Assembly: GCA_903789535.1 (NCBI GenBank)
Contig: CAIFES010000003.1
Span: 124,001-188,000, forward strand
Origin: an uncultured Aeriscardovia sp.
Lineage (GTDB): Bacteria > Actinomycetota > Actinomycetes > Actinomycetales > Bifidobacteriaceae
Reading direction: 5' to 3'
Length of the DNA: 64,000 nucleotides
Made by a program: the position numbers and the translations under genes. This document shows, in pieces, positions 3,391-36,702 of the stretch (positions are counted from its first letter, which is position 1; each line of letters starts with the position of its first letter). The notes under the pieces are model-generated. The model was not told the DNA's origin and ran no database searches. It saw only the letters and a list, made by a program, of their open reading frames with translations.

Positions 3391-6078
3391 ATGCGCACGT
3401 CTGAGATCGCACAGCGTTTTCTCACCTATTTCCAGAAGAACGGCCATCTGGTGGCCCCCTCGGCGTCGCTGATCTCGCCCAACCCCACCACGCTGTTCAC
3501 CATCGCCGGCATGGTCCCGTTCATCCCGTACCTCCTGGGCGAGCAGACCCCGCCGAGCCAGCGCATGACGAGCAACCAGAAGTGCGTGCGCACGCTTGAT
3601 ATCGACGAGGTGGGCAAGACCACCCGTCACGGCACCTTCTTCCAGATGCTCGGCAACTTCTCCTTCGGTGATTACTTCAAGGAGGAGGCCATCCACTACG
3701 CGTGGCACATCCTGACCACCTCCCAGGCCGACGGCGGCTACGGGTTCGACCCTGACAAGCTGTGGGTCACCGTCTACACCAACGATGACGAGGCGGCCTC
3801 CATCTGGCAGAACGAGGGCCTCGACCCGGAGCACATCCAGCGTCTGGGCATGGCGGACAACTTCTGGACCACCGGCGGTCCCGGCCCCGGCGGCCCGTGC
3901 ACCGAGATCTTCTATGACCGTGGCCCGGCCTACGGCAAGGACGGCGGCCCGGTTGCCGATGATAACCGCTACATCGAGATCTGGGACCTCGTCTTCGAGA
4001 CGTACCAGGTCGACGATGTCAAGTCGAAGACCGACATGCATATCGTCGGCGACCTGCACCGCAAGAACATCGATACCGGCATGGGCCTCGAGCGCGTGGC
4101 CTACCTGCTGCAGGGCAAGCAGAACATCTACGAGACCGACGAGGTGTTCCCCGTCATCGAGGCCGCCGAGCAGCTCTCCGGCCGCAAGTACGGCGAGAAT
4201 CACGATGACGACGTGCGCTTCCGCATCGTGGCCGACCACGTCCGCTCGGCGCTGATGATCATGTCCGACGGCGTGCGCCCCTCCAACGTGGGACGCGGCT
4301 ATGTGCTGCGCCGACTGCTGCGCCGCACCATCCGCTCGATGAAGATGCTTGGCGTGGAGGGCGAGGTCATGCCCACCCTGCTGCCGGCCTCCGAGCATGT
4401 GATGCGCCTGAGCTTCCCGGAGATCACCGAGACGTTCCATGACGTGTCCGAGGCCGCATACGGCGAGGAGGACGCCTTCCGTCGCACGCTCGACAAGGGC
4501 ACCGACATCCTCGACGTGGCCGTGAAACAGGCGAAGAAGGATTCGGCCGACAAGGGCACGAAGGCGCTCGTCTCGGGCGAGGATGCCTTCAAGCTGCATG
4601 ACACGTATGGCTTCCCGATCGAGCTCACCCTCGAGATGGCCCGCGAGCAGGGCGTGGACGTGGATGAGAAGGGCTTCAAGACGCTCATGGCTGAGCAGAA
4701 GGCCCGCGCCCGCAAGGACGCGCTCAAGAAGCGCGGCAACGTGGACCTCGACCTGTACGACGACGCTGTCTCCAAGCTCACCAAGCCGATCGAGTTCGTC
4801 GGCTACACGAAGTCCAGCTGCCGTGCGCGCATTCTGGACATCCTCACTCAGGACGGGCCGGTGGACGAGATCAGCGCGCCCGCCGACGTGGAGGTCGTCC
4901 TCAACGTCACCCCGTTCTATGCCGAGCGCGGCGGCCAGCTCGCTGACGAGGGCCAGATCCTCTCCGACGAGGGCGGTGTGTTCGACGTGGATGACGTGCA
5001 GACCCCGGTCAAGGGGCTGCGCGTGCATGAGGGCCGCCTGACCGACGGCACCCTGCACGTGGGCGACGAGGTGAGCGCCTCCATCGACACGGACCGTCGT
5101 GCCGCGCTCGCCCGCTCGCACACGGCCACCCACATCCTGCACCGCGCCCTGCGCGACGTGCTCGGTGAGCAGGCCACGCAGCGCGGCTCGGTCGTGGCGC
5201 CTGACTTCCTGCACTTCGACTACCAGTGGCCGACCGCCCCCACCCGCGAGCAGCTCGACGAGGTCGAGCGCGAGGTCAACGAGAAGATCATGGACGATCT
5301 GCCCGTGACCGCCAAGGAGATGCCGATCAAGGACGCTGAGGACCTGGGCGCCGACCATCTGTTCGGCAGCAAGTACGGCGACATCGTGCGCGTCGTGACG
5401 ATCGGCGAGGATGGCTGGTCGCGTGAGCTGTGCGGCGGCACCCATCTGGACAAGACCGGCAAGGTGGGCAACTTCGTCATCACCGGCGAGTTCTCCAACG
5501 GCTCTGGCGTGCGCCGCATCGACGCCTACATGGGCCACAAGGGCTACGAGTACAACCACACCGAGCATCAGCGTGTGGCGGGCCTCGCCAGCCGCTACAA
5601 CGTGCCGCAGGAGCAGGTGGTCGAGCGTGTGGACCAGCTCGTCGACCAGCTCAAGGCCGCCCAGCACAAGCTCGCCGAGCTGTCCGCCGCGCGTCTGGAG
5701 CAGGCCGTGCCGCAGATGGTCGAGCAGGCCGAGAAGGACGGCGGCGACGTGCTCGTCGCTGTGCGCAACGCCGGCAATCTGGGGGATATCGCCTCCGTGC
5801 GCCAGGTGGCCATGGACGTGCGCGCGCGTCTGGGCGAGGACAAGCCCGTGGTCGTGGCCCTGGCCGGTACCGGCGAGAAGGGCAATCCGCTCGTGTTCGT
5901 GGCCGTCAACAAGGCGGCGAACGCCAAGGGCATCAAGGCCGGTGACCTCGTGCGCACCGCCTCCAAGGTGCTCGGTGGCGGTGGCGGCGGCCGTCCGGAC
6001 TTCGCCCAGGGCGGTGGCCGTGACGCCTCGAAGATCGACGAGGCGCTCAGCGGGCTTTCCGCCTCGGTGAGGGGCTGA
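3391..6078 (+). CDS. alaS: Alanyl-tRNA synthetase
   Basis: The 895-residue protein charges tRNA-Ala with alanine and edits Ser or Gly mischarging. It has the class II aminoacylation core (begins [38 protein letters not shown] is class II motif 1/2 territory). The editing domain has the zinc-type HTATH at residues 577-581 and CGGTH at 681-685. The C-terminal DHHA1 region contains [15 protein letters not shown]. Length fits the family. AAGGAG lies 11 bases before ATG 3391. The order DUF948, small membrane protein, alaS, ruvX, mltG is conserved in actinobacteria and suggests a shared transcription unit. Confidence 0.98.
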
Positions 6079-23902: not shown

Positions 23903-25327
23903 TCAGTTGTCGCGATGGTCGTCCCTGGTGTCGGCCACGCTGCCGGGCAGCAGCACGTCCATGCTGAACACGCCGCGCCGCGTGTCGGCGGACTCCTGCG
24001 CATTGCCGTCGTATTTCTCGGCGATGTGCTTGATGGAACGGATGCCGAAACCGTGCTTGCCCGGCTCGTTCGTCTTGCTCGTCAGCAGCGTACCGGTCGG
24101 AGAGTGGCGCAGGTTTGACGGGTCGAAGCTGTTGTCGCAGTGCAGCACCACGAACCCGCCGCGGCGCTCCACGCTGAAGTGGATGATCTTGCGCTCGTCG
24201 TCTTTCAGCCTCGCGCTCGCCTCGATGGCGTTGTCGAGCATGTTGCCCACGAGCGAGGTGATGTCCAGCGCCTGCAGGCCGGAGAGCGCGGTGCCGTCGG
24301 CCATCACGATCAGGTGCACGCCCAGACGGGCGCATTTGCGCTGCTCGCCGTTGATGACCGTGTCGAGCACGGCATTGCCGGTCTGTGTGAGCGTGGAGGC
24401 GCTGTCAATGTCGTCCTGGAACTGGCGCAGCATGGCCGAGGCGTCCGCTGTGGCAGACTTTGCGGGCCGGCTGGTCGTGGTCGGGGAGCTGTTTGTGGCC
24501 ACGGCCCCGGCATCCGGTCCCTCGAACACCATCACATAATGCTTGAGATCGTGCGAGAGCCGATGGATCTCGTCCAGGTTCTTCTTCAACTCGAGGTATT
24601 GGCGCCGCTCGTCCGCCGCCGTCTTCTCCAGATTCTGTTTCTCCGCGTCGAGCAGGATGTTGCGCCGGTAGATCTGTTGCATGTACATCACCGATCCGGT
24701 GAACAGGATGGTCAGCGTGCGCAGATAGAAGGCGTTGCTCAGCTGGCCGAAAGTGTCGGGATCGCTCTCGGAGAAGAAGCGCAGCGAGGTGGCGGTCGTG
24801 TTGTTGGCCACGAGCAGCCCGGCAATCGAGAGGCAGAAGGCGATGGTGATGCTCAGCCAGCCCACATGCTCCAGCGTGTTGCCGCGGAAGGCGATGCCTT
24901 CGACGATCACACCGAGGATATTGAGCACGATGCCGATGGCGATGAGGATGATCGGCCGCCACATGGTGTGGTACACGGGTGCCATGAGACCGGAGACGGC
25001 CATGGCATAGGCGAAGGAGATGGTCGCCTCCGTGTGGGTGAACGTGTGGGTGGCCACATAGATGCTGGCCTTCCATGTGTGGCCGGTGCCCGCCCACAGA
25101 AGAAGGAAGTCACAGACGGCGGTGACGAGCGGTCCCAGAGGAAATCGGTCGGTGTACGGCTCGTTGGCCATCAGGAAGCTGGTGGCGAGGAACACGGGGA
25201 TGGCCGCGATGTCGGTGACGATCAGACGCCATCTCGGCGCGGGATGCCTGATACAGATGAAATAGGTGGTCAGCGCCATCCATTCGAAGACGGGGACCAC
25301 CAGCTTTGTCAGCAGCGACAGCGTCAT
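23903..25327 (-). CDS. AgrC-like (GHKL) sensor histidine kinase
   Basis: The 474-residue protein has about six N-terminal membrane helices (residues 1-200), then a coiled-coil linker (LDAEKQNLEKTAADERRQYL), the phospho-accepting His in IHRLSHDLKHYV, an N-box LDNAIEASARLKD and a G-box HGFGIRSIKHIAEKYDG. It belongs to the HPK10-type kinases (AgrC, ComD, VirS). Unusually, a roughly 35-residue Thr/Ser/Ala-rich segment (TNSSPTTTSRPAKSATADAS) follows the H-box. It is the second gene of an operon with the response regulator upstream; 4 bases separate stop and start, with GGGGCGG as ribosome-binding site. Such kinases often sense small peptides; no peptide precursor is obvious here. Confidence 0.88.
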   Translation of the reverse strand: MTLSLLTKLVVPVFEWMALTTYFICIRHPAPRWRLIVTDIAAIPVFLATSFLMANEPYTDRFPLGPLVTAVCDFLLLWAGTGHTWKASIYVATHTFTHTEATISFAYAMAVSGLMAPVYHTMWRPIILIAIGIVLNILGVIVEGIAFRGNTLEHVGWLSITIAFCLSIAGLLVANNTTATSLRFFSESDPDTFGQLSNAFYLRTLTILFTGSVMYMQQIYRRNILLDAEKQNLEKTAADERRQYLELKKNLDEIHRLSHDLKHYVMVFEGPDAGAVATNSSPTTTSRPAKSATADASAMLRQFQDDIDSASTLTQTGNAVLDTVINGEQRKCARLGVHLIVMADGTALSGLQALDITSLVGNMLDNAIEASARLKDDERKIIHFSVERRGGFVVLHCDNSFDPSNLRHSPTGTLLTSKTNEPGKHGFGIRSIKHIAEKYDGNAQESADTRRGVFSMDVLLPGSVADTRDDHRDN

Positions 25328-26168: not shown

Positions 26169-26261
26169 AAACCTGAAAACTTGCTGACAAAAGTGCCGCA
26201 CTGAAATCAAGATATGTTGCTACCTATGGTAAAGCTGAAAGAGAGCTATTGCAAATGCTCT

Positions 26262-26270
26262 GGGGGGGGG
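26262..26270. repeat. Homopolymeric G9 tract in pilus control region
   Basis: Nine G residues, followed by TGAC, lie 13 bases before the possible -35 of the pilus promoter. They also fall within a potential leader reading frame. Tracts of this kind are prone to slipped-strand length change. Confidence 0.85.
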
Positions 26271-26426
26271 TGACATCCTTTCCTTGAGAATTGATGAATA
26301 TATTTGATAAAGATATTGCATATCAGGAATGAAAATCACCCGATTATGCAAGACGAATTCACACCTCCTGAATTTGCGTTTCAATGAATATTGAAGGCAA
26401 TACCGGAAAGACCGAGGAGGTGGATC

Positions 26427-29400
26427 ATGAAAGCGACGCTCACAAAGATCACGTCTGTTGTGGCGGCGTGCGCGTGTGCCATCGCGATGATCCTTGTCTC
26501 GGTTCTTCTGCCGCAGCAGAAGGCGAGTGCCGCCGATGATTCCGGCAGTTTCACCGCGGACGGTGTAAATATCCCGGACTACTGCGGACATAACAGCGTC
26601 TATCTTCTCAGCACCACCGGCGAGGTCTATCGGGCTTTCGTCCCCAGCGATGGCTCGGGGATGATCACCAACACCGCTGGTGATGTGACCGGAAGAGATG
26701 ATGACACCACAGCGAACGCGACATCGGCAAAGTGCCTTATCCCGATGCCGTATCTGCCGGCAAGCGTCACGGTGCAATACACCACCGCGAAACGCCGGAG
26801 CATCGCGCAGACGATCGGCACCGCCAGAAATGTGACCGGCAAATATAATGCGCTCGGTGCGGATACGTCCGACGGCACCCTGTGGGCCGCGGCGGAGATC
26901 GATACTTCGACCGCGGGCATGGGGATGCAGGTTTTCCGTCTTGATGCTTCCGATCGGCAGGCGCATCAGAGCATGCCGAATCCGGAGATCCGCAACTCTG
27001 GTACCTCTCAGACTCTTGATACGACCGATAAGTCGTATTGGAAGACCGTGGGCGGCTTCATCAAGCTCTCACAGCAGGTCGGTACCCGGTATCCCAATGT
27101 GTTCGGCGGCGCGGTCAACCCGGCGAACCATCGGTATTATGTGGCCAATCTCATTTCCCCGATGAAGGGGACCGCACCGAATACCAAGAATCTCACCCTG
27201 GAGATCCGCAGTTTCTCGTCCGCCGGCCAGGTCGGGGGCACGAAGACGGTGACGATTCCATACACCGGTACCAGATGGGGAGGAAGTTCCACTCCTCGTG
27301 GCGACATCGAGTTCGATGACAACGGCAATCTGACGATCGTCGTCAGCAAGATGCAGACGAGCGACAGCGGTGAGGCACGTTCCGTCGGTATGATCAGCAT
27401 CCCTGCCTCGACGTTGGATTCATCCGATTCGATCACAGGAAGTCTGAGGCTGTTCGCTACCCCTTCATACACGAACGGTGGTGCAGAGATCGGTACGAAT
27501 GTGCGGCGTGAGATTTCAGGTATCGGCTTCTCCGGGACGGATACATCAAGCCTGACCGTCTCGATGTACGATACGACGTCCTGCCCGACGACCGGTTCCG
27601 GATGTGCTATGGATTCTGCGTTGTTCTCGATGAATGTGTCGGACGCCAATCTGAATGAGATCTTCGCGCTGCCGCAGACCCCTCCATACACACAGACGAC
27701 CCCGTCATGGGGGACGTCGGCGGATTCCGTCTGGACACTCGCAAAAGGCTACGAGTCGTGGGGCGGTGGAAGCTCATACACTCAGTCCGACAAGTCCAAT
27801 GATCCTGCACGGTACTATCTGCAGTCACACGAGATCATGGATATCGCCAAAGGCGGTGCGGTCGAATCCTCAAAGCCGTACTCCGGCAGCTACCAGTTCA
27901 CCAAGGTTGATGCAACGTCCGGTGCAACGCTGAGGGGAGCAGAGTTCACGCTCTGGCCGTACGACGGCTCGATCTGCGGGAGTGCACCTACGTCGGCTTC
28001 GGGGATCACCCTCGGCTCGGATGGCAGCCTTACCGGTGCCACGACGGCGGCATCGGATGCGAACGGTCTTGTGTCGTTCACCGACGTCCCGCTCGGAAAA
28101 GCGACGGCGACTGCCCAGACGTCCAGGCAGTTCTGTCTGGCAGAGACTGGCTCGCCGGACGCCTCCGCCTATGAGCTGGACAAGACACCGAGCATCATCG
28201 AGATCCAGCCGTCCGCGACCCAATCCATTACCGTCGGTGCGAATGTGAAGAACACCCGTCGGACCGGCTCCATCTCGTGGACAAAGTCCGATGAGACGGA
28301 TACGACGAATCTTCTGCCTGGCTCGCGGTGGTCGGTGTCGTACACGCCTGAGTCCTCTGATACCGGCACGCTCTCGGGTTGGACGAAAGCAGTGACGGAT
28401 TGCGAGTCGTCCACCTGCAGCGTCGCTTCCGGTGATCTCAAGGACAACGACACCGATGCCGGCGAGTTCACACTCACCGGTCTGACGTGGGGCAAGTATG
28501 TCGTCACTGAGACGCATGCTCCTAAGGGCTACGACATTCCGGAAAGCGGCTACTCCCACACGTTCTATGTAGGCAAGTCCAACTTCAACGGCAATGCGTC
28601 CTATGAGGGTCTGAATCCCGCGTCGAACGCGTTCACCGATCCGCGTGTGAAGTCCGGCGTCATCCGCTGGGGAAAGCTCTCGACCAAGAACACCAAGGGA
28701 GTGCAGAAATCTGGCGACGTGACTGAAGATACTTTTTCCACGCTTGCCAGCGAGGCACTTCCCGGTTCGGGCTGGACACTGTATTCATCGTCGGATCATA
28801 CGACCATCACCATCACCGATTGCGTTGTGAACAATGAGAATGACAACGTAGATGTCTCGGGTTGCGCTGCGAAGTTTGGGTACTCCCCAACGAGCACCGC
28901 ACTGTTCGATACCGATCCACGTCCAGGGATGTTCTGTGTGAACGTGTCGAATGACAAGTTCGCGACGTTCACCTTGGAAGAGGTGACACATCCGAAAGGC
29001 TACAAGCTCAACACGAATGATGATTGGGGGAACTTCACGGTGGACGCCAGTCATCTGTCCCCGCTTCCCAAGGCCATTCTCGATGAGCCGATCGTTCCTA
29101 GCGTCACCTGGGGCAAATACAGCTCTACAGACGTCAATGGGGTTCAGACATCTCTTCCGGATTCGTCGAAGCGACCGCTCGCCGGGTCTGTGTGGAAGGT
29201 TGTCTACTACAGCAGCATGGGTCCGCAGTATTATGCCACCATCAGTGACTGTGTCACGAATGCTTACCATCAATGCACACCGTCACCAGTTGCTGATGGT
29301 GATGGGCGTGCCGGTGTGTTCAGTCTGAATCTGAGTATCTATGGCGTCGGTAAGTACGCCCTCATTGAGCAGACGGCGCCGCTGGGATATCAGCTTGACC

Positions 29401-29609
29401 CTACGCCTCATGTCTTCACCGTCACCGACGACAACCCGAATGTCACGTTCGCGTTTGGCGATGAGATGGCCTCCGGGCCGACCCTGCCGATGTCGGGCGG
29501 CACCTCAACCCAAGTCTTCCGATGGGCCTCCGCCGGGTTCTTCCTCCTGGCGATCCTGTCGGCATCAGTGCTGTGGATCAGGAGGAAAGGCGGTGCGCGA
29601 GTGAAGTGA
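26427..29609 (+). CDS. Large LPXTG-type pilus tip / ancillary pilin (SpaA/CnaB repeats)
   Basis: The 1060-residue surface protein starts with a signal peptide (basic start, hydrophobic core, probable cut after KASA). A ~450-residue N-terminal domain without known motif follows, then about four SpaA/CnaB-like domains, each beginning with a strand such as VTWGKYSS and ending in an E-box like KYVVTETHAPKGY or KYALIEQTAPLGY. The C-terminus has the sortase signal LPMSG (1020-1024, non-canonical fourth residue Ser), a hydrophobic helix and a basic tail. The layout suits a tip adhesin or minor pilin of the FimB/SpaC kind, exposed at the pilus end. AGGAGG precedes ATG 26427 by 6 bases. It is first in the operon with major pilin and sortase C. 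Confidence 0.88.
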   Translation: MKATLTKITSVVAACACAIAMILVSVLLPQQKASAADDSGSFTADGVNIPDYCGHNSVYLLSTTGEVYRAFVPSDGSGMITNTAGDVTGRDDDTTANATSAKCLIPMPYLPASVTVQYTTAKRRSIAQTIGTARNVTGKYNALGADTSDGTLWAAAEIDTSTAGMGMQVFRLDASDRQAHQSMPNPEIRNSGTSQTLDTTDKSYWKTVGGFIKLSQQVGTRYPNVFGGAVNPANHRYYVANLISPMKGTAPNTKNLTLEIRSFSSAGQVGGTKTVTIPYTGTRWGGSSTPRGDIEFDDNGNLTIVVSKMQTSDSGEARSVGMISIPASTLDSSDSITGSLRLFATPSYTNGGAEIGTNVRREISGIGFSGTDTSSLTVSMYDTTSCPTTGSGCAMDSALFSMNVSDANLNEIFALPQTPPYTQTTPSWGTSADSVWTLAKGYESWGGGSSYTQSDKSNDPARYYLQSHEIMDIAKGGAVESSKPYSGSYQFTKVDATSGATLRGAEFTLWPYDGSICGSAPTSASGITLGSDGSLTGATTAASDANGLVSFTDVPLGKATATAQTSRQFCLAETGSPDASAYELDKTPSIIEIQPSATQSITVGANVKNTRRTGSISWTKSDETDTTNLLPGSRWSVSYTPESSDTGTLSGWTKAVTDCESSTCSVASGDLKDNDTDAGEFTLTGLTWGKYVVTETHAPKGYDIPESGYSHTFYVGKSNFNGNASYEGLNPASNAFTDPRVKSGVIRWGKLSTKNTKGVQKSGDVTEDTFSTLASEALPGSGWTLYSSSDHTTITITDCVVNNENDNVDVSGCAAKFGYSPTSTALFDTDPRPGMFCVNVSNDKFATFTLEEVTHPKGYKLNTNDDWGNFTVDASHLSPLPKAILDEPIVPSVTWGKYSSTDVNGVQTSLPDSSKRPLAGSVWKVVYYSSMGPQYYATISDCVTNAYHQCTPSPVADGDGRAGVFSLNLSIYGVGKYALIEQTAPLGYQLDPTPHVFTVTDDNPNVTFAFGDEMASGPTLPMSGGTSTQVFRWASAGFFLLAILSASVLWIRRKGGARVK

Positions 29610-29707: not shown

Positions 29708-31309
29708 ATGCAGAACAACAGCATCAAGAAGGCCGTCGCGGGCATCGCTGCGGTGGCAGCGGCCTCCATCGGCCTCGGAATGGCGGCACCCGCCGCAATG
29801 GCGGATGACCTCAGTGTTGGCAACATCAATACGAGCAAGACCGGCACCCTGACCATCCATAAGCGTGCCCAGGCCGATGACAACGGCACCCACAAGGGGT
29901 CCGGCCTCGAGGATAAGAGCGTCACCGGCGAGGGTATCAAAGGCGTCGAGTTCACCGTCTACCCGGTCACCGGCTTCAGCTGGGATGATGCGAACAAGTG
30001 GGGCGACCTCGACAAGCTCTCCGTCGGTACAGACAACAAGGTGTATACGACGGCCAGCGGCACGACCGCTCTCCACGACCCTGCCGCGAGCATCGACACC
30101 GCCAATAAGCACGTCGTCACCACGGATGCCAGCGGAAATGTCTCCATCTCCGGTCTGCCGCTCGGTCTGTACTATGTCGTCGAGACCAACAACGGCAATT
30201 CAAGCCGACAGAACCCGCAGGTGACGGGCGACGCGAACCCGTTCTTCGTCACCCTGCCGTACCCGACGAAGAATGATTCCTCGGCATCCTCGAAGAACGG
30301 CCAGTGGAACTATGACGTCCACGTCTATCCGAAGAACAACGTGAACAATGTCAAGAAGACCGTCGATGTGAGCGGCGCCGTCAAGGTCGGCGACGAGATC
30401 GTCTGGAACATTGACCAGACCGTCCCGGTGCTCGGCAAGGACGCCGAAGGCAACCAGATCAAGTTCACCCACTTCGGCTTCGTCGATCCGCTCGACTCCC
30501 ACACCACGTACCAGAGCATGAAGGTGATCGCCCTCGACAACAAACTGAAGCCGATCTCCCCGGAGGAGGTCGTTCCTTCCTCTTACTACACGCTGACGCA
30601 GGACGGGAACACCATCTCCGTTGACTTCACCAAGGCCGGTCTCGCGCAGCTCGACGCGCGCAAGTATGCCGCCATCCGCTTCGCCGTGACTGTGAAGGTC
30701 ACCTCGCTTCCTGCCAACTATCAGGTGCCCAACAGCGTGTACCAGTGGATCAACACCCCGAAGCCGAGCACTTCCGGCGAGTCCACCCCGGTCAAGTCAC
30801 AGGATCAGCCGTACTACGGCGATTACACCTTCAAGAAGATCGATGACCTGACTCCGGCCAACCCGCTTTCCGGTGCCGAGTTCGTCATGTGGAAGCGCAC
30901 AGGCACCACCTGCGAGCAGACGAAGCCGAACTCTGGCGTGATCAACGCCGATGCTGCTTCCAATACCCAGGGTCTTGTCAAGTTCAGCGGTGTGCTGATC
31001 GGCAAGTTCGCCACCGGTACCACGAATGATCAGGCCACCGCGCACTTCTGCCTCCTTGAGACCAAGGCTCCGGCCGGATACCAGCTCAACAGCACCGTCA
31101 AGGATGTCATCCTGCATGCCGGCGTCAACGGTGCCGGCACGACGGAGAACCCGTACGACCAGGTCAAGAACACCAAGCAGAACGGTCCGAACCTGCCGCT
31201 CACTGGTGCAGCCGGCAAGCTGATTCTCCTGCTCGGCAGTGTCGCGGTTCTCGCTGCGGCCGGTGCCCTGTTTGTGGTCAATTCTCGTCGCCAGCGCGCC
31301 AACCGCTGA
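29708..31309 (+). CDS. Major pilin (FimA/SpaA-type), LPLTG-anchored
   Basis: The 533-residue protein carries a signal peptide ending AAPAAMA, the pilin motif VYPKN (Lys209, the usual cross-linking residue), Cna-B/SpaA-like domains with an E-box CLLETKAPAGYQL, and the C-terminal LPLTG (496-500) with TM helix and basic tail. This is the standard backbone pilin that sortase C polymerises through the YPKN lysine and the LPXTG threonine. AAAGGA lies 7 bases before ATG 29708. It follows the tip gene by 98 bases and precedes sortase C. Confidence 0.92.
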   Translation: MQNNSIKKAVAGIAAVAAASIGLGMAAPAAMADDLSVGNINTSKTGTLTIHKRAQADDNGTHKGSGLEDKSVTGEGIKGVEFTVYPVTGFSWDDANKWGDLDKLSVGTDNKVYTTASGTTALHDPAASIDTANKHVVTTDASGNVSISGLPLGLYYVVETNNGNSSRQNPQVTGDANPFFVTLPYPTKNDSSASSKNGQWNYDVHVYPKNNVNNVKKTVDVSGAVKVGDEIVWNIDQTVPVLGKDAEGNQIKFTHFGFVDPLDSHTTYQSMKVIALDNKLKPISPEEVVPSSYYTLTQDGNTISVDFTKAGLAQLDARKYAAIRFAVTVKVTSLPANYQVPNSVYQWINTPKPSTSGESTPVKSQDQPYYGDYTFKKIDDLTPANPLSGAEFVMWKRTGTTCEQTKPNSGVINADAASNTQGLVKFSGVLIGKFATGTTNDQATAHFCLLETKAPAGYQLNSTVKDVILHAGVNGAGTTENPYDQVKNTKQNGPNLPLTGAAGKLILLLGSVAVLAAAGALFVVNSRRQRANR

Positions 31310-31440: not shown

Positions 31441-31474
31441 CGGGGCGGGAAGGGCGTGTTCCTTTCCCGCCCCG
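31441..31474 (+). other. Second strong hairpin upstream of sortase gene
   Basis: CGGGGCGGGAA (31441-31451) pairs perfectly with TTCCCGCCCCG (31464-31474), loop 12 bases. No T tract follows. Confidence 0.55.
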
Positions 31475-31487
31475 TCTCCGTATCCAG

Positions 31488-31515
31488 GGATTCGTATGCG
31501 AGGATTCGTATGCAG
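31488..31515. repeat. 14-bp tandem repeat before sortase gene
   Basis: GGATTCGTATGCGA is followed directly by GGATTCGTATGCAG. The 14-bp unit is out of any reading frame, consistent with non-coding spacer. Confidence 0.75.
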
Positions 31516-31564
31516 GGAGATGCCGCATTCCCGTATGCTTCGGGTATGCGGGAGGAAGATACGG

Positions 31565-31608
31565 CATCTGACGGGCGTACGACATCTGACAGATATATAA
31601 CATCTAAC
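31565..31608. repeat. Three 18-bp-spaced repeats before the sortase start
   Basis: CATCTGAC at 31565 and 31583 and CATCTAAC at 31601 recur with exact 18-base spacing, ending 18 bases before ATG 31627. Confidence 0.7.
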
Positions 31609-31626
31609 AGGCGGGAGGCGGACGAC

Positions 31627-32679
31627 ATGACGGCACAGCAGCGGGGGAGCCGTGCGGCTGACGACGGGAGCGGGACCAAGACTGAAGCCGACTTCCGCGA
31701 CGGCAAGCCGAAAATCGGCGCAGGGAAGATCGTCTCGGCCCTCTGGCTGCCCTATCTCATCGTCCTGCTCGTCATCGCAGGCCTCACCATGCTCATCTAT
31801 CCGAGCGCGGCGCAATGGCTGAGCCAGTACAACTACGAGCGCACACTCAACAACTACACGGCGGCCATCGCCAAAGACACCGTCACCCCCGACGAGAAAG
31901 AGCAGCTCGCCGCCGCCAAGGCCTACAACGACGCGCTCATCTCCGGCGCCCAGCTGCTGCCCAACCATCGCATCCCCAGCGGTTCGGGTACGCTCAGCGC
32001 CTCTGGCGGCACCATCAAGAGCGGCGGGCGTACCTGGACGTACGACCAGATCCTTGCCGCCGACTCCACAGGACTGATCGGCAAAATCCAGATCCCCAAG
32101 ATCGATGTGGATCTGCCCATCTATCACGGCACATCAGACGAGACCCTGCTCAAAGGCGCCGGCCACCTCGAGGGCACATCGCTGCCCATCGGCGGAAAAT
32201 CGACCAGGACCGTCATCACCGCGCATCGCGGCCTGGCCTCCGCCGAGCTGTTCACCCGCCTCAACGAGATCAAGAAGGGCGACGAGTTCACCCTGCAGGT
32301 GTTCGGCAAGGTGCTCATGTACCGCGTGGTCAGCACGCGTGTGATCGACCCGAAGGACACCGCCGCCATCAAGGCCGTCAAAGGCAAGGATCTTGCCACG
32401 CTCATCACCTGCACTCCGCTGGGCATCAACACACAGCGCATCCTTGTGACGGGCGAGCGCGTGGTGCCCACCCCCAAGAATGCGGCGAAGAAGCTCAATC
32501 TGCCCAAGTTCCCGTGGTTCTTCGTGGGCTACTGCCTGGGACTGATACTGCTGATTGTGTGGGCGGTCTACCAGACGCGGAGCTCCCTGCGGCGTTTGCA
32601 CGACGATGCGCTTGGCGTCGGCACGAAGGACAGCTTCTACCGTCCGACCGGCAGCAGGGGCATGCATCTGAAGGAATAG
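31627..32679 (+). CDS. srtC: Sortase C (pilus-type class C sortase)
   Basis: The 350-residue membrane transpeptidase joins pilin subunits. It has an N-terminal membrane helix (LIVLLVIAGLTMLIYP), the catalytic His200 in VITAHRGL, Cys262 in LITCTPLG and Arg271 in TQRILVTGER. A second C-terminal membrane helix (FVGYCLGLILLIVWAVYQ) is usual for class C. It lies downstream of both pilins. Start ATG 31627 is preceded by GGGAGG; the upstream open frame (from 31456) holds three 18-bp repeats and a 14-bp out-of-frame repeat, so it is probably leader rather than coding sequence. Confidence 0.9.
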   Translation: MTAQQRGSRAADDGSGTKTEADFRDGKPKIGAGKIVSALWLPYLIVLLVIAGLTMLIYPSAAQWLSQYNYERTLNNYTAAIAKDTVTPDEKEQLAAAKAYNDALISGAQLLPNHRIPSGSGTLSASGGTIKSGGRTWTYDQILAADSTGLIGKIQIPKIDVDLPIYHGTSDETLLKGAGHLEGTSLPIGGKSTRTVITAHRGLASAELFTRLNEIKKGDEFTLQVFGKVLMYRVVSTRVIDPKDTAAIKAVKGKDLATLITCTPLGINTQRILVTGERVVPTPKNAAKKLNLPKFPWFFVGYCLGLILLIVWAVYQTRSSLRRLHDDALGVGTKDSFYRPTGSRGMHLKE

Positions 32680-35246: not shown

Positions 35247-35647
35247 CGGGCGGATTTGCTGCGGGAGCTTGTTGTTGTGCGAGTTTGCCGTTTGCTGAGC
35301 GGGAGCTTGTTGTGTGTGTGGGGGGGGGTGACTGTGAAGTTGCAGAGACTGTTGGTGACTGCGAGTGACTGTGAGTGAGAGCCTACGGTGACTGCGGGTT
35401 TCCCAGTCGTCCACATTTCTGATATCGGCGACCGGCACAATCGTCCGCTGGTAAAATGGTTGGAGTTATGCGCTAATCAAGTGAAAAGTTCCGGACGCAT
35501 GGAAGATCTCGAAGCGTGATGCCAAGAGACAACAGACCAGGCAGTCCGGAAAGCCGTGTGACTCGAAAAGTCATCTGATACGAAAGCAACCCTATATAGA
35601 AGTAATCCGATAAAGAAAAACACACATCTACAGAAAGAAGGTGGGAT
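35247..35647. other. Repeat-rich spacer with a second G9 tract
   Basis: This 401-base spacer shows no gene. It holds two copies of a GCGGGAGCTTGTTGT-like unit (35261-35275 and near 35299-35313), a TG run leading into G9 (35320-35328) followed by TGAC, and four copies of GTGACTGYGR (35328-35337, 35355-35364, 35365-35374, 35388-35397). Nearer to the next gene it is AT-rich, with CCTATATAG and a GACT-N5-AGTC pair, and a GAAGG ribosome-binding site 10 bases before the next ATG. Confidence 0.6.
35320..35328. repeat. Second homopolymeric G9 tract
   Basis: Nine G residues preceded by a TG repeat and followed by TGAC, as in the pilus control region. It lies 73 bases after the MFS stop and 320 bases before the AbiEii partner gene. 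Confidence 0.85.
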
Positions 35648-36040
35648 ATGACACTGATTGATTCGAAAGGCGCCGCGAGCAATTCCGTGACGATGCACGC
35701 CTACTCTGCCTATCCCGCCGAGCACCCTGATTCTTTTGACGACCTGCACGGGCCGTCGCACGGCAGGCTTGTTCTGCCGCTGGATGTGTATTGGGGGCCG
35801 GATCGGCAGAAAGGTTTCGATCTGTCGAACCCTGCGGATGTTGTGTATGCCTATTCGGAAGTCGTCGCCAATGCGACCGCTGACCAGCAGGAACGCATGC
35901 TCAACAGAAAGTTACTGGTCAAATACTGGCCGGAACTGTCCATTGATGTCAGACGTATCAGACCGGCGTGGGAGAAAGCTTTCCCCGCGCTCAGAGAAAG
36001 CATGGCAGCATGGAAGACGTCGAGAAACAACGTGGGCTAG
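35648..36040 (+). CDS. Small partner of AbiEii-like nucleotidyltransferase
   Basis: The 130-residue soluble protein has a conserved-looking core: LPLDVYWGPDRQKGFDLSNP, then VVYAYSEVVANATADQQERM and YWPELSIDVRRIRPAWEKAF. I recall such proteins in operon with AbiEii-like nucleotidyltransferases in actinobacteria; their function is not established, and an antitoxin-like role is inference. GAAGG lies 10 bases before ATG 35648. The end overlaps the next gene by 31 bases in another frame, so the two are translationally linked. Confidence 0.7.
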   Translation: MTLIDSKGAASNSVTMHAYSAYPAEHPDSFDDLHGPSHGRLVLPLDVYWGPDRQKGFDLSNPADVVYAYSEVVANATADQQERMLNRKLLVKYWPELSIDVRRIRPAWEKAFPALRESMAAWKTSRNNVG

Positions 36041-36702
36041 CGTTTCAGCGCGAGATATTCAGGCTCCTCTCGCCGGCACTTCACCCGTACGGGTATGCCC
36101 TAGCCGGCTCTGGGGCAATTCGCGAATACAAGCTCATCGATCGGCCGACAGACGATATTGATCTGTTTACCGTCATGGCGCATCAAAAACAAACACGGCA
36201 GGCGGCTGATCTCGCGATCACGCTTTTGTCCGACCATGGCTATCACGTCAAGAAAGTCCGCGAATCACACATCTTTACGAGACTTCTCGTCACGCGCGAG
36301 GATCTGTCGACCGAGATTGATCTGTCGGTCGATGCACGGCAGAAGCCGGCTGTTCTTTTGGCGGATGGCTGGGTCATCTCACCAGAGGATGCTATTGCCT
36401 CAAAGATCGTGGCGATGACATTCCGTGGTGAGCCGCGCGACTATCTGGATGGGGTGGCTATCTACCGCTCGAAGATCATGCCGATGCCCGACCTGTACGA
36501 TCTGTGCCGGAACTTTGACGCCACCTTCAGCGAGGGATTTGTTCTGCTGTCATTGCAACGATTCACTGACATAGACGACCGGCAGTTCGCCCGTTATGTC
36601 GACGCGAAACAGCTTGGAGAGGTCCGTCGTCTTGCCGGTCAGTGGATCGACGAGCTGCGTGCGGCAGGCGTGGAGCCGCCCAGTTATGTTCCTGGGATGT
36701 AA
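36010..36702 (+). CDS. AbiEii/AbiGii-like nucleotidyltransferase
   Basis: The 230-residue protein has the MNT-type nucleotidyltransferase core: YALAGSGAIREYKLIDRPTD then DDIDLFTV (GS and DxD-type metal residues), STEIDLSVDARQ (third acidic residue) and AIASKIVAMTFRGEPRDYLD. AbiEii-type enzymes are toxins that modify tRNA or NTPs in toxin-antitoxin and phage-abortive systems; here the toxicity is inferred only. The start overlaps the upstream small partner by 31 bases. It converges with lacI, 69 bases apart. A defence or stabilisation role is plausible but unproven. Confidence 0.8.
   Translation: MEDVEKQRGLAFQREIFRLLSPALHPYGYALAGSGAIREYKLIDRPTDDIDLFTVMAHQKQTRQAADLAITLLSDHGYHVKKVRESHIFTRLLVTREDLSTEIDLSVDARQKPAVLLADGWVISPEDAIASKIVAMTFRGEPRDYLDGVAIYRSKIMPMPDLYDLCRNFDATFSEGFVLLSLQRFTDIDDRQFARYVDAKQLGEVRRLAGQWIDELRAAGVEPPSYVPGM

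What the first reader, a model, noticed from the sequence alone, without database searches (positions are those of the whole stretch)
26262..26270. G9 homopolymer beside the pilus promoter: candidate phase-variable switch
Nine G residues sit 157 bases before the tip-pilin start and 13 bases before a possible -35 (TTGAGA). Pure G tracts are rare here: I found only this and one other of nine bases. Slippage of such tracts switches surface structures in many bacteria, and poly-G tracts have, to my recollection, been linked to bifidobacterial sortase pili. Here the tract is intergenic rather than within the pilin gene, suggesting promoter or leader control.
Basis: partly seen in the sequence, partly recalled or inferred. 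Interest (0 to 1): 0.75.

Follow-up and report, generated by a model that had tools for sequence, protein, structure and literature searches.

The report
Slippery G-tract at a pilus promoter
A run of nine G bases sits just upstream of a hair-like pilus operon in a gut bacterium (Aeriscardovia); such runs gain or lose bases easily, and their placement at this and other pilus operons suggests a random switch that tunes whether the pilus is made, although switching itself could not be shown here.

Summary
The G9 tract (26262-26270) is real, intergenic, and lies 156 nt before a sortase-pilus operon (tip pilin 26427, backbone, sortase) that is divergent from a LytTR two-component system. The organism is an Aeriscardovia species (Bifidobacteriaceae). 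Four of the genome's six sortase operons carry a G>=9 tract at their 5' end: three intergenic (G9, G10, G11), one inside a signal peptide (0.03 expected). The published B. breve mechanism, frame fusion inside the pilin gene, is excluded here: TGA at 26385 closes the pilin frame. Family-wide scans revealed a recurrent promoter class, TTGNAA, 7-8 nt, G8-13, TATANN, in which the tract fills the -35/-10 spacer; orthologous copies keep the boxes but differ in tract length. A pilus operon in two sibling Aeriscardovia has it with G9 (17-nt spacer) versus G7 (15 nt). Our tract has the matching -35 (TTGCAA, 26249) but only a weak -10 (TGACAT). Length polymorphism and an effect on pilin were not testable. 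New variant of a known kind; interest 0.55.

The parts
26262..26270 (+). G9 homopolymer tract (intergenic), candidate slipped-strand contingency tract
26249..26254 (+). -35-like TTGCAA, 7 nt before the tract; the only TTGNAA in this intergenic region
26271..26276 (+). hexamer TGACAT directly after the tract, at the -10 position of model A (spacer 16 nt); weak, 3/6
26284..26289 (+).
26299..26304 (+). TATATT, alternative -10-like hexamer (5/6) 28 nt after the tract, without a matching -35
   Evidence: sequence
26358..26385 (+). TTCACA-16-TTCAAT, another possible core promoter (9/12); its -10 part is conserved in the sibling G002
26385..26387 (+). in-frame TGA that closes the pilin frame upstream of its ATG; excludes frame fusion through the tract
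26415..26420 (+). AGGAGG ribosome-binding site of the tip pilin
   Evidence: sequence
26427..29609 (+). tip pilin / adhesin, 1060 aa, signal peptide, SpaA (PF17802) domains
29708..31309 (+). pilin backbone, 533 aa: GramPos_pilinD1, SpaA, LPXTG anchor
31456..32679 (+). pilus sortase (PF04203), 407 aa
25332..26072 (-). divergent LytTR response regulator (PF00072 + PF04397), 189 nt from the tract
23903..25327 (-). sensor histidine kinase (GHKL, PF14501), likely partner of the LytTR regulator

Best explanation
The G9 is a slipped-strand contingency tract that acts at the promoter of the sortase-pilus operon. Gain or loss of G during replication changes the spacing of promoter elements and so the rate of transcription. 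Most likely (model A) it is the spacer of a sigma70-type promoter: -35 TTGCAA (26249-26254), 7 nt, Gn, then TGACAT (26271-26276) in the -10 position. That gives spacers of 15, 16, 17 and 18 nt for G8, G9, G10 and G11, i.e. graded rather than strict on/off control. Because the -10 is weak, the promoter probably also needs an activator, plausibly the divergent LytTR regulator. Shown: the tract, its position, exclusion of frame control, enrichment of such tracts at sortase operons, and the recurrent promoter architecture in relatives. Inferred: slippage in this species, promoter activity, and dependence on the regulator.
For: (1) Four of six sortase operons in this genome have a G>=9 tract at the 5' end: C3 (this one), C5 G10, C8 G11, C7 G9 in the signal peptide; 0.03 expected, Poisson P about 4e-8. 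(2) The pilin frame is closed between tract and ATG here, at C5, in eight inferred Gardnerella pilus loci and in G059, so those tracts cannot work by frame. (3) A family scan for G8 followed by TATANT gave 23 hits versus 4 for the reversed control; TTGNAA-N8-G8 gave 25 versus 7, and the single hit in this genome is this tract. (4) Orthologous copies keep both boxes while the tract varies, e.g. TTGCGAATAGGCGT-G9-TATAGT, TTGCAAATAGGCAT-G10-TATAGT, TTGCAAATAGGCGT-G11-TATAGT. (5) A pilus operon in siblings G003/G001: TTGACC-17 nt with G9-TATATT versus TTGATC-15 nt with G7-TATTCT. (6) TTG lies 13-14 nt before the tract in 4 of 5 Aeriscardovia pilus-upstream tracts but 2 of 38 others. (7) Homopolymer slippage is experimentally known in B. 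breve pili (PMC9187656) and in Gardnerella (PMC11287997).
Against: The -10-position hexamer here is poor (TGACAT, 3/6), unlike TATANT in the Gardnerella class and in G003. Better-scoring core promoters lie downstream of the tract (TTGAGA-16-GATAAA and TTCACA-16-TTCAAT). The tract is absent from the one orthologous locus found in the genus (G002), although that locus looks decayed (pilin ORF ends at 431 aa, no kinase beside the regulator). No second strain of this species was available, so length variation is untested. Many family hits are orthologues, so the counts are not independent, and the TTGNAA pattern was chosen after TTGCAA had been seen at this locus.
Confidence: 0.5

Rival explanations
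1. Model B, Bordetella fim-like: the core promoter lies downstream (TTGAGA/GATAAA, or TATATT at 26299) and the tract sits between it and an upstream activator site, so slippage changes the phasing of the LytTR regulator with RNA polymerase.
For: The downstream -35/-10 pair scores 9/12. A 13-nt direct repeat (AGCTATTGCAAAT 26244 / AGATATTGCATAT 26311) flanks the tract. In four pilus loci of one inferred Gardnerella clade the tract lies about 30-34 nt before a TATAAT/TATACT without a good -35 (measured by eye on the sequences). A LytTR regulator is divergent.
Against: No significant LytTR-type direct repeat at 20-23 bp spacing was found. It does not explain the TTG 13-14 nt before the pilus-upstream tracts.
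Confidence: 0.22
2. The tract acts on the divergent LytTR regulator/kinase promoter, and on pili only indirectly.
For: The tract lies 189 nt upstream of the regulator start; minus-strand promoter-like sites exist on both sides of it.
Against: The other three tract-bearing sortase operons show no evident divergent LytTR regulator in the ORF lists (not tested with domain models), yet have tracts at the first pilin gene. The best regulator promoter-like site (26179-26151, TG-AATAAT) is over 80 nt from the tract.
Confidence: 0.08
3. A neutral or mutational G run, or an assembly error, with no regulatory role.
For: The tract is not conserved in G002; the genome holds other G9 tracts with no evident target, e.g. 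35320 in low-complexity DNA; G-run lengths in assemblies are unreliable (PMC9187656).
Against: Strong enrichment at sortase operons and the shared -35 geometry.
Confidence: 0.19
4. Intragenic frame switch as in B. breve bbr_0113/bbr_1889.
For: Same family, same kind of operon; the sister operon at C7 of this genome does have it: only G9 of G7-G11 keeps its pilin frame open.
Against: Here the in-frame TGA at 26385 and an RBS-preceded ATG with signal peptide at 26427 exclude it. The short ORF from ATG 26226 that ends at the TGA directly after the tract (26271-26273) has no RBS.
Confidence: 0.01

Closest known systems
B. breve UCC2003 sortase-pilus G-tracts (Penno et al. 2022, PMC9187656)
   Same: Bifidobacteriaceae, sortase-dependent pilus operon, tract of similar length at the first gene; slippage proven there
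   Different: There the tract is inside the pilin ORF and fuses two frames; here it is intergenic and cannot. The paper only mentions in passing that other UCC2003 G-tracts lie in promoter spacers.
Gardnerella homopolymer tracts (PMC11287997)
   Same: Most G/C tracts are <300 bp upstream of ORFs, many for surface proteins; variability shown by Sanger sequencing for one tract
   Different: The verified tract is intragenic (signal peptide), and no promoter-spacer architecture is described in the sections and search hits of that paper that I read. Here it is seen across orthologues.
Promoter-spacer contingency loci such as H. influenzae fimbriae (cited in PMC9187656) and Neisseria porA/fetA (from memory)
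   Same: Repeat between -35 and -10 tunes transcription of a surface structure
   Different: Gram-negative hosts and other repeats or genes; here a Gram-positive sortase pilus with a divergent LytTR system and a weak -10
Bordetella pertussis fim C-tract (from memory)
   Same: Homopolymer next to a fimbrial promoter under a two-component system
   Different: Regulator site and core promoter here are unmapped

Membership tests
Sortase-dependent pilus operon | pilin genes with Sec signal and LPXTG/SpaA domains plus a dedicated sortase | tested here: met
   SpaA tip pilin, GramPos_pilinD1 backbone with LPXTG anchor, PF04203 sortase
B. breve-type intragenic pilus G-tract switch | tract within the pilin ORF so that length sets the reading frame | tested here: not met
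   in-frame TGA at 26385 between tract and ATG 26427
Promoter-spacer G-tract class (TTGNAA, 7-8 nt, Gn, TATANN) | -35 box 13-14 nt before the tract | tested here: met
   TTGCAA, 7 nt, G9; only hit in this genome
Promoter-spacer G-tract class (TTGNAA, 7-8 nt, Gn, TATANN) | recognisable -10 hexamer directly after the tract | tested here: inconclusive
   TGACAT, 3/6 against TATAAT; most Gardnerella copies have 4-5/6
Slipped-strand phase-variable locus | tract length varies within a species or clone | not testable with these tools
   one genome per species; only sibling species differ, at another pilus operon (G9 versus G7)
Slipped-strand phase-variable locus | length changes expression of the linked gene | not testable with these tools
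   needs reporter or transcript data
Bordetella fim-type (tract between activator site and core promoter) | activator binding site upstream of the tract | tested here: inconclusive
   one search finds a 13-nt repeat flanking the tract; one search finds no significant LytTR-spaced repeat

The most novel reading that the evidence does not exclude
In Bifidobacteriaceae outside the B. breve model, sortase pili are gated at transcription by G-tract spacers. At this locus the slippage tract tunes a weak-box promoter that also needs a LytTR two-component regulator, so random switching and sensing are combined in one promoter, while the same genome switches another pilus by an intragenic tract.
Probability: 0.25. 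Interest if true: 0.7.

Novelty: new variant of a known kind. Interest (0 to 1): 0.55.

Why it matters
Pili decide how gut and mucosal commensals attach to the host. If the tract works as proposed, one genome uses two kinds of slippage switch, at transcription and at reading frame, on different pili, giving mixed populations from a single cell. It also offers a testable promoter class (TTGNAA, 7-8 nt, Gn, TATANN) that links this gut commensal to surface-protein variation in Gardnerella.

Tried and rejected
Frame fusion through the tract: rejected (TGA 26385). Leader peptide from ATG 26226 to the TGA directly after the tract (26271-26273): no RBS, rejected. LytTR direct repeats at 20-23 bp spacing: not above shuffled sequence. 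Canonical promoter scan of the intergenic region: only minus-strand hits, near chance. DNA search of the intergenic region in 59 genomes: only itself. Tip-pilin scan of the GTDB contigs: no relatives. LytTR regulators of B. canis and B. italicum: no G-tract beside them. The genome's longest tracts (G16, G17, G21) were dismissed as assembly-gap junk beside low-quality sequence and runs of N. The experimentally verified variable tract of Gardnerella was checked as a possible promoter-type precedent: it is intragenic.

Full report
Observation. The window holds G9 at 26262-26270, exactly as reported. It is one of only two G/C runs longer than six in 64 kb. Genome-wide, G/C runs of at least 6, 7 and 8 number 112, 40 and 32. 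Twelve of the 32 sit in low-quality sequence, mostly beside runs of N, and are treated as junk; of the other 20, lengths are 8:6, 9:9, 10:4, 11:1. So runs of nine or more are commoner than the decline from six to seven predicts, as expected of a genome with contingency loci.

Surroundings. Downstream on the same strand lie a 1060-aa SpaA-domain tip pilin (ATG 26427), a backbone pilin with LPXTG anchor, and a sortase. Upstream and divergent lie a LytTR response regulator and a GHKL sensor kinase. The pilin start has a good ribosome-binding site, and its frame is closed upstream by TGA at 26385. Tract length therefore cannot change the pilin reading frame. The mechanism supported in B. breve, fusion of two frames inside the first pilin gene (PMC9187656), is excluded at this locus.

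Association with pili. Protein search finds sortase genes in six gene clusters of this genome (two of the seven matches lie in one cluster, C8). Four clusters have a G>=9 tract at the 5' end: this one (G9, 156 nt upstream), C5 (G10, 245 nt upstream), C8 (G11, 340 nt upstream of an LPXTG protein; here the frame happens to stay open back to the tract) and C7 (G9 in the signal peptide, where only G9 of G7 to G11 keeps the frame open). About 0.03 would be expected by random placement of 14 tracts. Elsewhere in the family, pilus loci carry either intragenic tracts or intergenic ones with a closed frame (eight inferred Gardnerella loci and G059).

Architecture. Scanning 189 Bifidobacteriaceae genomes for G8 followed by TATANT found 23 matches against 4 for the reversed control. 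Most are upstream of signal-peptide surface proteins in inferred Gardnerella, with TTGAAA or TTGCAA 14 nt before the tract. A second scan for TTGNAA-N8-G8, asking nothing about the -10, found 25 against 7; all 17 inferred Gardnerella matches have a TA-starting hexamer directly after the tract, and the only match in the present genome is the tract under study. That pattern was chosen after I had seen TTGCAA at this locus, so it is not a blind test for this tract. In orthologue groups the boxes are kept while the tract runs from G8 to G13. In the sibling Aeriscardovia genomes G003 and G001, another pilus operon has TTGACC-17-TATATT with G9 and TTGATC-15-TATTCT with G7. Across 43 tracts in three Aeriscardovia genomes, TTG stands 13-14 nt before the tract in 4 of 5 pilus-upstream tracts and in 2 of 38 others (hypergeometric P about 0.0006 by hand, or about 0.003 if the two sibling operons are counted once). 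These facts favour the tract as a promoter spacer.

Mechanism for this locus. With G9 the distance from TTGCAA to the next hexamer is 16 nt, with G10 17 nt. The hexamer itself, TGACAT, is a poor -10. Downstream candidates score better as isolated promoters, so a Bordetella-like arrangement with the tract between an activator and a downstream core promoter remains open. Which is right needs the transcription start. The divergent LytTR regulator is an obvious candidate activator, but no significant LytTR-spaced repeat was found.

Limits. Only one genome of the species is held, so within-species length change was not tested. The one orthologous locus found in the genus (G002) lacks the tract, but its pilin ORF is short and no kinase lies beside the regulator. 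Family counts include orthologues. Published evidence that such tracts slip comes from B. breve (PMC9187656) and Gardnerella (PMC11287997), not from this species.

Verdict. The interpretation, a candidate phase-variable switch acting at transcription, is strengthened but its geometry is revised. It is a new variant of a known kind of contingency locus.

Noticed in passing
window 35320-35328: Second G9 tract in GT-rich intergenic DNA after an MFS transporter gene, about 320 nt before a small ORF that overlaps an AbiEii-type nucleotidyltransferase gene (35968-36702, PF08843).
   Followed up: partly
L067:2984-2991 and 3669-3678: A sugar-transferase (PF02397, EPS priming type) gene appears split into two frames at a G8 tract, with a G10 tract just before its start: candidate phase-variable exopolysaccharide.
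   Followed up: partly
L065:3036-3044: C9 tract near the end of an Eco57I-type methylase (PF07669) ORF that overlaps the next ORF: candidate phase-variable restriction-modification.
   Followed up: partly
L081:2972-2980: G9 inside the signal peptide of an LPXTG pilin next to a sortase in the same genome; only G9 of G7-G11 keeps the frame open.
   Followed up: yes
L033:9757-9765: In the sibling G002 the orthologous LytTR regulator has a C9 tract at its C-terminal end, and its pilin ORF is short.
   Followed up: partly
L074:2990-2998: In-frame G9 near the start of a FemAB-family gene (peptidoglycan bridge), a possible cell-wall contingency locus.
   Followed up: no
L243:1463-1535 and L256:1493-1561: Twin G tracts about 62 nt apart at the same place in siblings G001 and G003 differ in length (9/10 versus 9/7).
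   Followed up: no
L283-L294, inferred Gardnerella genomes: The published forward primer for a Gardnerella homopolymer amplicon matches many places per genome, as if it lies in a dispersed repeat.
   Followed up: no
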